A stretch of 42,332 bases of DNA from Chloroflexota bacterium (GTDB taxonomy: Bacteria > Chloroflexota > Dehalococcoidia > JACQUD01). The notes below the pieces were generated by a model that ran no database searches, had not been told where the DNA came from, and saw only the letters and a list, made by a program, of their open reading frames with translations. The stretch spans positions 1 through 42,332 of the forward strand of contig JACQUD010000002.1 of the NCBI GenBank assembly GCA_016210485.1, read 5' to 3'. Every line of letters begins with the position of its first letter. Within the stretch, counting starts at the first letter, position 1. The position numbers and the translations under genes are program-made. Positions 22,052 through 33,294 of the stretch are shown piece after piece.

Positions 22052-23845
22052 TTAGCTCACCAGACTCATAGATTTGAGCGCCGGGAGCAGGAAGTCGAGC
22101 CCTAGTCGCTCCAGGCCTTCTCTCGGTGGCAAGCCTTCCTCGGTCAGCCTCAGGTTTTTCACGTAATACCTTTTTTTCTCCGCCTCAAACTCCGCTTTAT
22201 CCCACACCCATGTATTGCCGTATTTGTCAGTAATGGGTTCATCGAAGGCCCGTGGGGGGAAGTTGTCATCTTTAGAGGGATGATACCCTTCCCTGAGGCT
22301 GAGACACCTGTTGAAGTAGTAGTTTCTCAGAGCTATATCCTTAACATCGTCCAGGGACAGATTCCATCCACAAGCAGCATTCAGGAATACCCTGGTAGCC
22401 TCCTCTATGGAGCCCCATATTTGCTGAAACGGAGGTGTGGTAAAAATGCATGCTGTCGCTGCCTCCGTCAAGGCTGATTCTATGCCGTGGCCCATGCGGG
22501 CGCCGTTATGGCTCGTGGCGAAGGGAATGCCCCAGGCAACCTCCTTATTGCGCACATCGTATGTTGGGGCAGCGCACCCATGAACCTCAAATGCATACCA
22601 CTTAGATTTCTCTCCGAAGACCTGGTAGGCTCGTCGGAATCCTTCGGCGAGAGCAGCGGGCGCCCGGCCTTGTTTATAGGCGATTTTCTTCATGAGCTCA
22701 CAGGTGGCCGCCACATCGCCCCAACGCAGGTCGATTCCGCCAAGGTCTTCTTTAGTGATGATCCCATGCTCGTAGAGGTCCATGGCCCAGGCTACTATCC
22801 CCCCCAGCTCCTCGCCGTCCATCCCCAGCTCGTCCTCTAGTGTCGCTATCTCCAGCATCTCTTCGAAGCCTACCATAATGTTGGCATTGAAGCCCCCCAC
22901 GTTATCGTGCCTTATCTCGCCTCCGAAGGCTCCCTTAGGCCCATTCTTAAAGTAAGGGACAAAACAAGCGGCGGCGCACCCGGGGCAACCGTCCGTCCAG
23001 ATATGGTACTTCAAGCAATGGTCGAGGTAGTTGCTTTCCTCAACAATTTCATGATACCCGAAGTGATTGTTCTTGATTCCCTCGGCGGCGTAGCGTAGCA
23101 GAGGGGCCGGCGACGCTGTGGCTCCCCACCGACTCCTGGACAGCTTGTGTAACGCTGTTTTTGAGCTGACAGCGTAGGTCCTGAATAGCTCCCAAACCTT
23201 CTGATGGTCGGCGTAGGAGGGGCCTTTAGTTCCCCTCACGGCGATAGCCTTGAGATTCTTGGAGCCCATCACCGCGCCGCACCCCCATTTGGAGGCGCTA
23301 TGGACAAACTCCGTGGTTGCGTTGGCGTATCTCACCAGGTTCTCGCCGGCAGGGCCTATACAGAGCACTCCGAACATCTCGCCGGTCTCCTCGTTCAATC
23401 TATCCCGCAGCATGACCTCAGTCTCTTGCTTCCACTTGCCCCACAGGTCCGAGGCATCTCGAATCTCTACCTTGTCATCATAGACGTAAAGATAGACCGG
23501 CCTCTTCGCCCTGCCTTTGAACAGAATCCCTGCCCCATATTGGGCTTTCACTATCTCATCGCCGATGTAGCCGGAGACAGTGCTTCTCCCAGCCCAGTTA
23601 GTCAGGGGGGATTTGAAGCTCAAAACCATCTTCGTTCCCAGGAGGCCCGTTAACGGCCCTACGCCGACGTGGAGGATGTTATCTGGACCGAGGGCATCTG
23701 CCCCCTGAGGCACCAAGTCCCACATCAGTTTGTTGGCTAGCCCCCTGGCTCCCAGGTATTTTTTGACATCTTCGGTGACGTCTAAGACCCGGCTGGTCTC
23801 TTTCGTCAAATCTACTTCTAATAGCTTGAAGTTGACTTCAGACAT
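22052..23845 (-). CDS. aldehyde:ferredoxin oxidoreductase family tungsten enzyme (AOR-1)
   Basis: LGARGLANKLMWDLVPQGADALGPDN, GPLTGLLGTKMVLSFKSPLT, CGAVMGSKNLKAIAVRGTKG, CPGCAAAC cluster motif; start set at MSEVNFKLLEVDL. Confidence 0.93.
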   Translation of the reverse strand: MSEVNFKLLEVDLTKETSRVLDVTEDVKKYLGARGLANKLMWDLVPQGADALGPDNILHVGVGPLTGLLGTKMVLSFKSPLTNWAGRSTVSGYIGDEIVKAQYGAGILFKGRAKRPVYLYVYDDKVEIRDASDLWGKWKQETEVMLRDRLNEETGEMFGVLCIGPAGENLVRYANATTEFVHSASKWGCGAVMGSKNLKAIAVRGTKGPSYADHQKVWELFRTYAVSSKTALHKLSRSRWGATASPAPLLRYAAEGIKNNHFGYHEIVEESNYLDHCLKYHIWTDGCPGCAAACFVPYFKNGPKGAFGGEIRHDNVGGFNANIMVGFEEMLEIATLEDELGMDGEELGGIVAWAMDLYEHGIITKEDLGGIDLRWGDVAATCELMKKIAYKQGRAPAALAEGFRRAYQVFGEKSKWYAFEVHGCAAPTYDVRNKEVAWGIPFATSHNGARMGHGIESALTEAATACIFTTPPFQQIWGSIEEATRVFLNAACGWNLSLDDVKDIALRNYYFNRCLSLREGYHPSKDDNFPPRAFDEPITDKYGNTWVWDKAEFEAEKKRYYVKNLRLTEEGLPPREGLERLGLDFLLPALKSMSLVS

Positions 23846-24512
23846 CTGACTGCCTCCACCCCGGATAGCCCATGCTGTCTTTCGGCAGCGGATACAATCT
23901 CTTGGCAATCAGCTCGGCCTTTTCATCCGGATGCTTCCGCAAGACGTCTTCTACTGAATAGCCGAAACGTGCCGCCGTGCTTTTGTAGTAGAGGGCATTG
24001 GTGGGACACACGTTGACGCACTGGGGATCGCGGTTGCCATTGTTCTCGACATCGCACAGGTCGCAGACGAAGGGCGTCTCAGTGACTGAGGGATAGGTTC
24101 GTATGGCTTTGGCTGAACATGCCTCACGACATAGTAAGCAGGACAGCCCGAGGCATCTCTCTTTGTCGATCACCATATGAGACGTACGACCATCGAAGTA
24201 GACTGCCGGTGGAGTTACAGGGCAGGCCTTTTCGCACTCCCTTTCTTCATCCGGGCAGTGAACGCACGTCATCTGGACTGCTTTAGGCAGGGGCAAGAGA
24301 TATTTTCGAACCTGTATCCTGGATAGGTCTTTATTGATTACGCCGAAATGCTGCATGGAGCAGGCCATCTGGCAGATCCCGCAGCCCACGCATTTCATCT
24401 CATCGCATTCGATGAAGGCAGGCCCTTGGGGATAGGGATAGTTCTCCTGACCCCAGCCCTTTTCCTTGTCTCTCTCCGCCATTGTGGAAGCCTCCTTCTT
24501 AAGTTTTGCCAT
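23838..24512 (-). CDS. 4Fe-4S ferredoxin-type electron-transfer subunit of AOR-1
   Basis: Several CxxCxxC clusters: CVGCGICQMAC, CVHCPDEERECEKACP, CLGLSCLLCREACS, CDLCDVENNGNRDPQCVNVCP; start overlaps no gene but is adjacent to the purM stop. Confidence 0.92.
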   Translation of the reverse strand: MAKLKKEASTMAERDKEKGWGQENYPYPQGPAFIECDEMKCVGCGICQMACSMQHFGVINKDLSRIQVRKYLLPLPKAVQMTCVHCPDEERECEKACPVTPPAVYFDGRTSHMVIDKERCLGLSCLLCREACSAKAIRTYPSVTETPFVCDLCDVENNGNRDPQCVNVCPTNALYYKSTAARFGYSVEDVLRKHPDEKAELIAKRLYPLPKDSMGYPGWRQSDV

Positions 24513-25544: not shown

Positions 25545-26990
25545 CTAAACTTCCAGGGCCAGCTTGTCCATCCCCTCCACCGCCCCCAGCTCTAGCTGGA
25601 CTGGGACGGGATATTCGCCGGTGAAGCAGGCCAGACAGAAAGAGTCGCAGGGCAGCCCCACCGCCCGGATGAGGCCCTCCAGGCTTAAATAGCCCAGGGA
25701 GTCAGCGCCGATGAAATGACAAATATCAGGGACGGACTTGTAGGCAGCGATGAGCTCCTGCCTGGTGGCCATGTCCACCCCGAAGAAGCAGGGGAAGCGG
25801 ATGGGAGGGGCGCAGATGCGCAGGTGAATTTCCCTGGCCCCAGCCCGGCGCAGCATGGCCACGATGTGGGGCGTCGTGGTGCCCCGGACGATGCTATCCT
25901 CCACCACCACCACTCGCTTGCCGCCCAGGACCTCAGGCAGAGGGTTGAACTTGAGCTTGACCCCCAGATCTCGGAGGCGCTGGTCGGGCTGGATGAAAGT
26001 GCGTCCCACGTAGCGGTTCTTCACCACTCCCTCGGCGAAGGGGATGCCCGAGGCATGAGCGTAGCCGATGGCCGCCTCGGTGGCCGAGTCGGGTACACCC
26101 ATCACCAGGTCGGCGTCCACCGGATACTCCTTGGCCAGCTCCATCCCCATGGCGGTCCGGGCCTGGTAGAGTAGCCGGCTCCCGATGACGCTGTCGGGCC
26201 GGGCGAAGTAGATATATTCGAAGATGCACGCCGCCTTCCGATGGGAAGGCTCTCGGAAGCTGGCCACACCATGTTGGTCGATGACCAAGAGCTCCCCCGG
26301 CTCCACCTCCCGCAGGAAATGGGCACCGATATGGTCCAGGGCGCAACTCTCCGAGGCCAGCACCCAGCCCCCGTTCAGGCTGCCCAGGCACAGAGGGCGC
26401 ACCCCCAGGGGGTCCCGCACCCCCATCAGGCAATCCTGAGTGAGGAGGGTCAGGCTATAGGCCCCCTCCAGGCGGCGCATGGCGTAGCAAACTTTCTCCA
26501 CCCAGCTCCGCCCCGGGGCCAGGGCGATGAGGCGAGCGATGACCTCGGAGTCTGTGGAGGAGGTGAAGGAGCATCCTCGGGCCATGAGGTCCCGGCTCAG
26601 AGTGCGACAGTTGACGATGTTGCCGTTATGGGCTAGGGCCAACTCCCCCAGCGAGCTCCGGACCAGCACGGGCTGGGCGTTGGCCGGGGTATTGGAGCCT
26701 TTGGTGGAGTAGCGGTTGTGGCCTATGGCGTGGCGGCCTTGGAGCTGACCCAGGGCCTCTTCTGTGAAGACCTGGGATACCAGGCCCAGGCCCGTGTGGA
26801 GGCGAATATCCTGGCCATTGCTAGTGGCGATGCCGGCGCTCTCTTGCCCGCGGTGCTGAAGGGCGAAGAGGCCAAAAAAGGTTACACGAGCCACATCCTC
26901 GCCGGGTGCATAAACTCCGAACACCCCGCAAGCTTCGCGGCCCCCCTCGGCCTCGTGAAAGCTAGAAGACCTCCCCTGCGCCAGAGGCAC
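25545..26990 (-). CDS. purF: amidophosphoribosyltransferase
   Basis: EACGVFGVYAPGEDVARVTFFGLFALQHRGQESAGIAT, GHNRYSTKGSN, VVVVEDSIVRGTTTPHIVAMLRRAGA. Confidence 0.98.
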   Translation of the reverse strand: MPLAQGRSSSFHEAEGGREACGVFGVYAPGEDVARVTFFGLFALQHRGQESAGIATSNGQDIRLHTGLGLVSQVFTEEALGQLQGRHAIGHNRYSTKGSNTPANAQPVLVRSSLGELALAHNGNIVNCRTLSRDLMARGCSFTSSTDSEVIARLIALAPGRSWVEKVCYAMRRLEGAYSLTLLTQDCLMGVRDPLGVRPLCLGSLNGGWVLASESCALDHIGAHFLREVEPGELLVIDQHGVASFREPSHRKAACIFEYIYFARPDSVIGSRLLYQARTAMGMELAKEYPVDADLVMGVPDSATEAAIGYAHASGIPFAEGVVKNRYVGRTFIQPDQRLRDLGVKLKFNPLPEVLGGKRVVVVEDSIVRGTTTPHIVAMLRRAGAREIHLRICAPPIRFPCFFGVDMATRQELIAAYKSVPDICHFIGADSLGYLSLEGLIRAVGLPCDSFCLACFTGEYPVPVQLELGAVEGMDKLALEV

Positions 26991-27020: not shown

Positions 27021-27050
27021 ATTATACCCTTTGTGCGGAGGAAAGGTCAA
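27021..27050 (-). promoter_or_regulatory. promoter of purF operon
   Basis: Minus strand TTGACC (27050-27045), 18-nt spacer, TATAAT (27026-27021). Confidence 0.7.
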
Positions 27051-27104: not shown

Positions 27105-27133
27105 TTGACACCTCCACTACCTTTAGCTATAAT
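27105..27133 (+). promoter_or_regulatory. perfect consensus sigma70-type promoter
   Basis: TTGACA (27105-27110), exactly 17 nt, TATAAT (27128-27133); the tRNA-like sequence starts 11 nt downstream. Confidence 0.8.
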
Positions 27134-27143
27134 CCCTGGTGCA

Positions 27144-27212
27144 AGTGATGTAGCTCAGCGATAGGGCGACTGCTTCTCAATCAGGGAAGCGAGAAGTCGA
27201 GCCACTTCGCTA
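27144..27212 (+). ncRNA. degenerate tRNA-like RNA / tRNA pseudogene (closest by eye to tRNA-Glu CTC)
   Basis: AGTGATG ... CTTCGCT acceptor-like stem (6 of 7 positions pair, one of them G-T), TAGCTCAGCGATAGGGC D-arm with 4-bp stem, ACTGC-TTCTCAA-TCAGG anticodon-like arm with only 3 pairs, collapsed T-arm (GAAGTCGAGCCA). Confidence 0.45.
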
Positions 27213-27318
27213 ACCCCATGAAGCAAAGTCAAATCACTACGGCGGTGGTTTTGTCGCAGGCTAACAGCAGTCCGAAGCTGGCTTTCGGCCAATCTAGCCT
27301 TAGAGCCAAAGGGTAAGA

Positions 27319-28152
27319 GTGACACCTCAGCTGACGACCTTCCATTTCATCTTCCTTCCACTCTTCGGGTTTGCGGTAGGGGTCTTGGGGACTCTTATAG
27401 GGGCGGGTGGTGGGTTCCTGCTGGTGCCTGTGCTGCTCGTCCTTTACCCCCACTCATCCCCAGCTACCATTACCGCCATCTCTCTGGCCGTAATCCTGCT
27501 GAACGCCAGTTCGGGTACCTTTGGCTATGCTCGTGAGCGGCGCATCGACTATCGGACTGGCCTTATATTGACAGCTACGGCTGTGCCCGCGGCCGTAGCT
27601 GGAGCTTTGATGACGCGTCTGGTCAGCCGGCAACTCTTCGAGCTTATATTCGGGTTGGCCATGGTTCTAGGGGCTGTCTACGTCTTGTGGAAGAGCACCG
27701 GGGAGGGGCAGAGAGTCAACCTCACCCATCAAGTCCCCAACAGGCTGCTTCGGGACCGCCAAGGGACAACTTATTCCTTTCATGTTAGCCAGCTTCTGGC
27801 GGCAGTGATCAGCCCGGCGGCGGGGTTCGTGTCCAGTTTTCTGGGGATTGGAGGGGGCATAATCCATGTGCCCGCTCTGGCTTTGCTCCTGCGTGTGCCT
27901 GCCCGCGTGGCCACCGCCACTTCCCACTTTGTTCTGGTCTTTACATCGCTGACAGCCGTGCTGGTGCACATTTTCACAGGCCAGTTTCACGAGGGCTGGC
28001 GGCGGGCAGGATTGCTTGGGCTAGGGGCGCTCCTGGGAGCACAGATAGGCGTCTATCTGGCGAACCGAGTCAATCCCAGGTTAATCATGCTGATACTCTC
28101 CCTCGGGCTAGCAGCCGCTGGGATACGACAAGTGCTGGCCAGCATCGCCTGA
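27319..28152 (+). CDS. sulfite exporter TauE/SafE family permease
   Basis: GTG start; FGFAVGVLGTLIGAGGGFLLVPVLLVLYPH, ISPAAGFVSSFLGIGGGIIHVPALALLLRVPARVATATS. Confidence 0.93.
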   Translation: MTPQLTTFHFIFLPLFGFAVGVLGTLIGAGGGFLLVPVLLVLYPHSSPATITAISLAVILLNASSGTFGYARERRIDYRTGLILTATAVPAAVAGALMTRLVSRQLFELIFGLAMVLGAVYVLWKSTGEGQRVNLTHQVPNRLLRDRQGTTYSFHVSQLLAAVISPAAGFVSSFLGIGGGIIHVPALALLLRVPARVATATSHFVLVFTSLTAVLVHIFTGQFHEGWRRAGLLGLGALLGAQIGVYLANRVNPRLIMLILSLGLAAAGIRQVLASIA

Positions 28153-31413: not shown

Positions 31414-33294
31414 TTAACGGTTCGCCTGCTGCTTCCCCCATACATCGGCTACGATATTATCCAGCCCCAGGGCTTTCAGGGTCTCGGGCAGGGGCTTGCC
31501 CGTCGCCTCGTCCCAGCCCATGAGGCGATAGTAGAGGCGCAGCATTCCCTCCCAGTGGGGAGCGACGTTCCTGCCCTGGGACGGGCCATCGCTGGGGATG
31601 GAGCTATAGCGAGGGGAGGGGGCATCCATCTCCTTGGTGATGCCGCAGCGGAGATTGTAAACCCTCATCATGTTCACCGTCCGCCTCCCCATGTCCATGG
31701 CATCCTGAAGAGTGAAGTCCCAGCCCGTGGCGGCGTTCAGGGCCTTGGCCAGGCGGTCCACATCGGTCCTGACAGTGAAGCGACATACCCCTAGCGAATC
31801 CTCAAACTGCATGGAACCCTTGCTCTTGGCCACAAAGGTGGCTATGCCATCGGAGTCGAACTGGCCTACTTGGGCAGGGAGGCCCAAATCCTCGGGCCGC
31901 AGCAAAATGGAGGTCGTCTCGATAGTGCTGGTGTTGGAGACGCAAGTATCGAACATCTCGAACCATCGAGTTCGGTGGTCGTGGCCCCTGGGTGCATTGC
32001 CCTTCCTGGTGAAGACAGCCATATTCCGGGCCTCCCCTCCCAGGCGCTGGGAGGCGCGCATAGTCCCTTCGGCCAGGATTTCGCCCAGGCCACGGCGATG
32101 GGCTATCTGTCGGAGCAAAGTGCGCGCGGCCTCGGCGTTGCCCCAAGTGAGCTCCAGTCCCCCCGTGTCCTTGCCGGTGATGATGCCCTTCTGGAAGCAC
32201 TCCATGGCGAAGCCCACCACCCACCCCGCCTCGTTGGTCTCCATGCCCAGCCGATCGACATCGTTGGCTAGGACGAAGGCAGCGTCCACATTGGTGTTGC
32301 CGATGACGGGCCCCCAGTTGGCCCACTGCTCATACTCTGGTTCCTCGCCCACAAAGCCGGCATAGGGGCCATCAGGGATCTTCATGATGTGGCAGTGGTG
32401 CATCTGGCAGGCCCAACACGGGTTAGGCTTGATCTGGTAGCGCTTCCGATAGTTCTCCCCCATGAAGGGGGCCGTCTCCGGGTAGATGTTGGTGGTGTAG
32501 TTCTTTACAGGAAGCGTCCCCGCCTTCTCTCCGTTGACAAAGCCCATGCTGGTGCCCCATTGATAGATATTCAGTCCGGGAGTATTCTTGGTATTCTCGA
32601 AGAGCTCATCGCCTACCGCTTTGAGGGCGGCTCTATCCTTGACCTGGAAGCCACCCCGACCCCGAGCGACAGCGATGGCCTTCAGATTCTTGGCGCCCAT
32701 GACCGCTCCAGGGCCGTTGTGGCCAGCTACGTGCCCTTTATCGCCGGCGATGGCGGCGAAACGAACCAGGTTCTCCCCCGCCGGCCCGATGCCGATGACA
32801 CTGCTTCCCTTCTCTGTCAGGCCCAACTCTTTCTTGATGGCCTCCTCGGTCTCCCAGGTATCCTTCCCTCGGAGGTGCTCAGCATCCCGAAGCTCTGCGG
32901 TGCCATCGTGGATATAGAGGTAGGCCAGCGATTTGGCTTTCCCCTGGATGACAATGCCATCGAACCCGGCGGTGCGCAGGTAAGCGCCAAAGAAGCCGTT
33001 GGCCTGGGTGGAGGTGGCCCCGTTGGTCTGAGCGCCCTTGGTGACCACGGAGTAGGTGCCAGAGCCCTTGATAGTGGTGCCGCCCAGAGGGCCCGAGGCC
33101 AGGACGAGCCGATTTCGAGGGTCGGCCCAGTTTAGCTCCGGAGGTACCTCTTCGTAAAGGACCTTGACCCCCAGCCCCGTCCCCCCGATGCATTTCTTTA
33201 AGGTATCTTCATTCAGTTCCTCCGCTGCAGCAGTGCCCTGGCTCAGGTCTACCCTGAGCAACTTTCCAGCGTAGCCATATATGCGCGATGCCAT
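31414..33294 (-). CDS. aldehyde:ferredoxin oxidoreductase family tungsten enzyme (AOR-2)
   Basis: YGYAGKLLRVDLSQGTAAAEELNEDTLKKCIGGTGLGVKVLYEEVP, ASGPLGGTTIKGSGTYSVVTKGAQT, NPCWACQMHHC cluster motif, GPGAVMGAKNLKAIAV. Confidence 0.95.
   Translation of the reverse strand: MASRIYGYAGKLLRVDLSQGTAAAEELNEDTLKKCIGGTGLGVKVLYEEVPPELNWADPRNRLVLASGPLGGTTIKGSGTYSVVTKGAQTNGATSTQANGFFGAYLRTAGFDGIVIQGKAKSLAYLYIHDGTAELRDAEHLRGKDTWETEEAIKKELGLTEKGSSVIGIGPAGENLVRFAAIAGDKGHVAGHNGPGAVMGAKNLKAIAVARGRGGFQVKDRAALKAVGDELFENTKNTPGLNIYQWGTSMGFVNGEKAGTLPVKNYTTNIYPETAPFMGENYRKRYQIKPNPCWACQMHHCHIMKIPDGPYAGFVGEEPEYEQWANWGPVIGNTNVDAAFVLANDVDRLGMETNEAGWVVGFAMECFQKGIITGKDTGGLELTWGNAEAARTLLRQIAHRRGLGEILAEGTMRASQRLGGEARNMAVFTRKGNAPRGHDHRTRWFEMFDTCVSNTSTIETTSILLRPEDLGLPAQVGQFDSDGIATFVAKSKGSMQFEDSLGVCRFTVRTDVDRLAKALNAATGWDFTLQDAMDMGRRTVNMMRVYNLRCGITKEMDAPSPRYSSIPSDGPSQGRNVAPHWEGMLRLYYRLMGWDEATGKPLPETLKALGLDNIVADVWGKQQANR

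What the first reader, a model, noticed from the sequence alone, without database searches (positions are those of the whole stretch)
27105..27240. Perfect consensus promoter driving a degenerate tRNA-like RNA between divergent operons
Seen: TTGACA-N17-TATAAT with no mismatches, then a 68-nt sequence with tRNA acceptor-like ends (AGTGATG/CTTCGCT), an intact D-arm and a weakened anticodon arm (TTCTCAA loop, CTC anticodon if read as a tRNA). The T-arm is shortened and does not fold canonically. A decayed gene would not be expected to keep a perfect promoter. Inference: it is either a recent tRNA-Glu(CTC) pseudogene, a T-arm-deficient tRNA, or a tRNA-derived regulatory RNA. A second pairing, AGTGAT (27144-27149) with ATCACT (27233-27238), could enclose a longer RNA.
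Basis: partly seen in the sequence, partly recalled or inferred. Interest (0 to 1): 0.62.

Follow-up and report, generated by a model that had tools for sequence, protein, structure and literature searches.

The report
Decayed tRNA-Gly gene with intact promoter
A worn-out spare copy of a bacterial glycine-tRNA gene still sits behind a perfect promoter, which probably survives because it now switches on the transporter gene next door; it is mostly ordinary gene decay.

Summary
The promoter at 27105-27133 is real: TTGACA-N17-TATAAT, 12/12. It is one of 11 such sites in this 1.24 Mb Dehalococcoidia MAG, where the control pattern gives none. The RNA behind it is tRNA-derived but degenerate: 18.3 bits against a 29-bit cut-off, and no ARAGORN call. 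It is not a 68-nt, T-arm-short tRNA-Glu(CTC). It aligns without gaps over 75 nt, CCA included (27144-27218, 47/75), to this genome's intact tRNA-Gly(CCC), which also has a perfect consensus promoter. Glycine tRNAs rank first among 119 tRNAs compared. Substitutions alone produced the CTC anticodon, broke 7 of 21 stem pairs and removed G19, G53 and T54. Pair retention does not differ from random substitution (P=0.27). No class relative examined has a tRNA here or a full-length match.

Best explanation: a decayed tRNA-Gly(CCC) paralogue. Its promoter probably survives because it is the only recognisable one for the downstream TauE/SafE gene at 27319, with no terminator between. That step is inferred. 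A functional tRNA-derived regulator is not excluded but has no support. In passing, the genome holds at least five more damaged tRNA genes; two of three relatives checked have none, and the third only weak candidates.

The parts
27105..27133 (+). consensus sigma-70 type promoter TTGACA-N17-TATAAT
   Evidence: 12/12; one of 11 in the genome; same hexamers and spacing precede the intact tRNA-Gly(CCC) on contig C4
27144..27218 (+). decayed tRNA-Gly(CCC)-derived gene in full-length register, including CCA at 27216-27218; anticodon position now CTC
   Evidence: gapless 47/75 to own tRNA-Gly(CCC); Gly isotypes rank first among 119 tRNAs; RF00005 18.3 bits
27080..27111 (-). possible trace of the upstream flank of tRNA-Gly(CCC), where a divergent NAD-dependent epimerase gene begins; weak
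   Evidence: with the hexamers masked the similarity is only P about 0.03
27319..28152 (+). TauE/SafE family transporter, the likely beneficiary of the promoter
   Evidence: Pfam PF01925, 2.4e-47; class homologues align from residue 1; no other promoter better than 7/12 and no terminator in between
27021..27050 (-). promoter of the divergent purF gene, TTGACC-N18-TATAAT
   Evidence: 11/12; similar TTGACC/TTGACT-N-TATAAT elements precede purF in many class relatives
25545..26990 (-). purF-like amidophosphoribosyltransferase (glutamine amidotransferase plus phosphoribosyltransferase domains)
   Evidence: Pfam; up to 71% identity to Dehalococcoidia MAGs

Best explanation
The locus is a decayed paralogue of the tRNA-Gly(CCC) gene. 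A second copy of the gene with its promoter came to lie between purF and a TauE/SafE transporter gene. It has since lost tRNA function by point substitutions only. The promoter most likely persists because transcription reads through the dead tRNA, as a leader of about 180 nt, into TauE. Shown: tRNA descent, Gly(CCC) as closest relative, loss of essential tRNA features, intact promoter, absence of another recognisable promoter or terminator before TauE. Inferred: transcription, read-through into TauE, and that this is what preserved the promoter.
For: Gapless 75-nt alignment to own tRNA-Gly(CCC), CCA in register, 47/75. Gly(CCC), Gly(TCC) and Gly(GCC) are the three best isotypes by mean score among 119 tRNAs of four genomes; Glu is not near the top. 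The best class-wide BLAST hits that ARAGORN could type are mostly Gly(CCC) and Gly(TCC), and the only phage hit is a tRNA-Gly. 7 of 21 stem pairs are broken, including three in the acceptor and the T-stem pairs next to the loop; G19, G53 and T54 changed; pair retention 14 against 12.3 expected, P=0.27. Of the 28 differences from the intact copy, 17 are changes on this branch and 3 on the other. The hexamers are 12/12 while spacer plus tRNA are 55/92 identical; at that rate 12/12 would be about 0.002 by chance (arithmetic), so the promoter itself looks selected. Nothing above 7/12 lies between it and TauE, and no terminator.
Against: No relative closer than class level is held, so neither age nor conservation can be tested within the genus. 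The covariance score alone is not significant (E=0.28). Homology of the sequence upstream of the promoter is weak once the hexamers are masked, so the promoter could have been acquired separately. TauE transcription from this promoter is not demonstrated. The gap between the best Gly and the best non-Gly match is modest (66 against 60).
Confidence: 0.74

Rival explanations
1. A tRNA-derived regulatory or non-translational RNA: the decayed tRNA-Gly is still transcribed from its strong promoter and has a new role, for example as an attenuating leader of TauE or a trans-acting small RNA.
For: Perfect promoter retained; fold slightly more stable than shuffles, z about -2 for the 73-nt piece; D-arm fully paired with one two-sided change.
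Against: No excess of preserved pairs over random substitution (P=0.27); no full-length counterpart in the class genomes searched; no Rfam family other than sub-threshold tRNA; the longer leader folds no better than shuffles (z=-0.74).
Confidence: 0.14
2. A still functional but aberrant tRNA reading GAG with Glu, or a non-translational tRNA-Gly used for example in cell-wall or lipid modification.
For: CTC in the anticodon position, CCA encoded in register, promoter kept; no intact tRNA-Glu was seen in this incomplete assembly.
Against: Three acceptor pairs, two anticodon-stem pairs and two T-stem pairs broken, with G19 and T54 lost. Glu identity is not supported by sequence. The missing tRNA-Glu is expected in a 69% complete genome that also lacks other isotypes.
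Confidence: 0.05
3. Chance: a random tRNA-like stretch behind an ordinary protein-gene promoter.
For: RF00005 E-value 0.28 for the 341-base piece and 0.24 for the genome, so the model alone is not decisive.
Against: The stretch starts 10 nt after a perfect -10 box, exactly where a tRNA should; 47/75 gapless identity with CCA in register; independent BLAST hits to tRNA-Gly(CCC) in relatives at E 5e-4 to 1e-3 per genome.
Confidence: 0.05

Closest known systems
tRNA-Gly(CCC) gene of the same genome (G000:C4:27185-27256, minus strand; L008)
   Same: 75-nt frame including CCA, 47/75 bases, promoter hexamers, 17-nt spacer and nearly the same promoter-to-gene distance (11 against 10 nt)
   Different: Intact (69 bits to RF00005, all 21 stem pairs formed, CCC anticodon); the window copy has 7 broken pairs, CTC, and lost G19, G53 and T54
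Bacterial tRNA pseudogenes in general
   Same: Sub-threshold covariance score, broken stems, an intact paralogue elsewhere in the genome
   Different: Full length without indels and behind a perfect promoter, which probably serves a protein gene
   Same: CTC in the anticodon position
   Different: The rest of the sequence groups with tRNA-Gly; Glu tRNAs are not among the best matches

Membership tests
tRNA (RF00005), functional | covariance score above the gathering threshold (29 bits) | tested here: not met
   18.3 bits
tRNA (RF00005), functional | cloverleaf with paired acceptor, D, anticodon and T stems | tested here: not met
   4/7, 4/4, 3/5 and 3/5 pairs in the homologous register
tRNA (RF00005), functional | near-invariant residues such as G18-G19 and T54-T55-C56 | tested here: not met
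   G19 to A and T54 to G
tRNA-Gly(CCC) pseudogene | closest relative is tRNA-Gly(CCC) by sequence | tested here: met
   supported
tRNA-Gly(CCC) pseudogene | an intact paralogue exists in the genome | tested here: met
   G000:C4:27185-27256, ARAGORN tRNA-Gly(ccc)
tRNA-Gly(CCC) pseudogene | no constraint on structure since duplication | tested here: inconclusive
   14 pairs kept, 12.3 expected, P=0.27: no constraint detected, but one sequence has little power
tRNA-Glu(CTC) | closest relatives are tRNA-Glu | tested here: not met
   Gly isotypes first; Glu not among the best
tRNA-derived regulatory RNA | conserved in relatives at sequence or structure level | tested here: not met
   no full-length match in about 390 class genomes; no tRNA at the purF or TauE loci in matching position; no closer relatives held
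tRNA-derived regulatory RNA | discrete transcript with a target or partner | not testable with these tools
   no expression data

The most novel reading that the evidence does not exclude
This lineage is losing or radically reshaping part of its tRNA set. Several tRNA genes, including ones that normally cannot be spared (Val-UAC, Arg-UCU), are damaged yet keep promoter elements. Either the damaged tRNAs are still used, perhaps with RNA repair or editing, or their promoters are being taken over by neighbouring protein genes, as proposed for TauE here.
Probability: 0.07. Interest if true: 0.65.

Novelty: new member of a known kind. Interest (0 to 1): 0.2.

Why it matters
It shows how a perfect promoter can outlive the tRNA gene it came with, and it corrects a misreading: in the right register this is a full-length dead tRNA-Gly, not a T-arm-deficient tRNA-Glu. 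The wider pattern of several damaged tRNA genes in one Dehalococcoidia genome may deserve a look once a complete genome exists.

Tried and rejected
tRNA-Glu(CTC): rejected by comparison with 119 tRNAs. Shortened T-arm and 68-nt length: rejected by the gapless 75-nt register. Longer RNA closed by AGTGAT/ATCACT: the predicted structure does not use it, and a 6-bp match 84 nt apart is weak on its own (judgement). Phage or plasmid origin: an exact 25-mer found nothing in viral contigs; phages gave one weak tRNA-Gly hit; plasmids none. Conserved synteny: no tRNA in the same place in the purF or TauE neighbourhoods of relatives. Extended upstream homology including a remnant of the epimerase start: looked strong at first (score 42, shuffle maximum 30), but with the hexamers masked only P about 0.03, so kept as a hint only. 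Three paper searches gave nothing specific to this; a fourth was malformed.

Full report
OBSERVATION. The window is contig C15 of a 1.24 Mb, 76-contig genome estimated 69% complete. purF relatives are Dehalococcoidia and other Chloroflexi MAGs at up to 71% identity, and the database holds nothing closer than class level. The promoter TTGACA-N17-TATAAT at 27105-27133 matches 12 of 12 positions. The genome has 11 such perfect sites and none for the reversed control pattern, so they are real signals. Three of them precede tRNA or tRNA-like genes: tRNA-Gly(CCC) on C4, tRNA-Gly(GCC) on C62, and this locus. ARAGORN finds no tRNA near the others, several of which run into open reading frames. The RNA behind our promoter is not called by ARAGORN and scores 18.3 bits against the Rfam tRNA model (cut-off 29; E=0.28).

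WHAT IT IS. Among the tRNAs of the same genome the best match is tRNA-Gly(CCC) at C4:27185-27256. The two align without a single gap over 75 nt, 47 identical, and the encoded CCA falls in register at 27216-27218. Against 119 tRNAs of this genome and three class relatives, the three glycine isotypes have the highest mean scores and Gly(CCC) is first; tRNA-Glu is not near the top. Class-wide BLAST hits that ARAGORN could type are mostly tRNA-Gly(CCC) or Gly(TCC), and the only phage hit is a tRNA-Gly. The CTC triplet is thus best read as a CCC anticodon with one substitution.

IS IT STILL A tRNA? In the homologous register 7 of 21 stem pairs are broken (acceptor 4/7 kept, D 4/4, anticodon 3/5, T 3/5), and the near-invariant G19 and T54 and the G53-C61 pair are lost. 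Random placement of the same substitutions would keep 12.3 pairs; 14 are kept (P=0.27), so no selection on structure is detectable, although one sequence gives little power. Of the 28 differences, 17 are assigned to this copy, 3 to the intact copy and 8 are ambiguous. The intact copy scores 69 bits.

WHY THE PROMOTER IS PERFECT. The intact tRNA-Gly(CCC) has the same hexamers and spacing. Outside the hexamers, spacer and tRNA are 55/92 identical; at that rate an unselected 12/12 would have a probability of about 0.002 (arithmetic). So the promoter has probably been kept by selection although the tRNA has not. The simplest beneficiary is the TauE/SafE transporter gene at 27319-28152, codirectional, 185 bp downstream. 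No site better than 7/12 and no intrinsic terminator lies in between. purF, on the other side, has its own promoter (27050-27021, minus strand), similar to those in front of purF in many relatives. That TauE is transcribed from here is inferred, not shown. The sequence just upstream of the promoter resembles the flank of tRNA-Gly(CCC), where an NAD-dependent epimerase gene starts, which would suggest duplication of the whole junction; but with the hexamers masked this is only P about 0.03, and I treat it as a hint.

CONSERVATION. No class relative has a full-length match, and the purF and TauE neighbourhoods of relatives carry no tRNA in the corresponding place. There is no sign of a mobile-element origin.

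ALTERNATIVES. A tRNA-derived regulator or TauE leader element cannot be excluded (0.14), but the fold is only about two standard deviations better than shuffles for the short piece and ordinary for the longer one. A functional aberrant tRNA (0.05) conflicts with the broken stems. Pure chance (0.05) conflicts with the position, the CCA register and the Gly match.

SIDE OBSERVATION. The same genome has at least five further damaged tRNA genes: Val(CAC) 38.7 bits, Arg(TCT)-like 32.6, Val(TAC) 28.4, Ala(GGC)-like without a proper D-arm 26.8, and an Ala/Pro-like remnant 13.1. Of three nearly complete class relatives, two have no sub-threshold tRNA match at all and one has five at 16.7-18.9 bits; none has a match between 20 and 47 bits. 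Whether this reflects real tRNA loss, assembly error or binning cannot be settled on a 69% complete assembly.

Noticed in passing
L023:152-224; L024:1501-1558; L025:1501-1574; L026:1501-1565; L028:1501-1563 (genome contigs C4, C42, C42, C41, C23): At least five further degenerate tRNA genes in the same genome (Val-CAC, Arg-TCT, Val-TAC, Ala-GGC without D-arm, an Ala/Pro-like remnant), several with TATAAT-like boxes upstream; three relatives have no tRNA match in the 20-47 bit range.
   Followed up: partly
window 27021-27050, minus strand: purF promoter TTGACC-N18-TATAAT; a similar promoter sits in front of purF in many Dehalococcoidia MAGs despite different neighbours.
   Followed up: partly
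L125 (G157:C94): A relative's tRNA-Gly(CCC) matches perfectly through the anticodon arm and then diverges after position 44, with no 3' half found nearby: probably a truncated tRNA-Gly(CCC) copy.
   Followed up: partly
window 22052-24512 and 31414-33294, minus strand: Two aldehyde ferredoxin oxidoreductase genes, one of them next to a 4Fe-4S protein and inside a purine-biosynthesis gene run.
   Followed up: no
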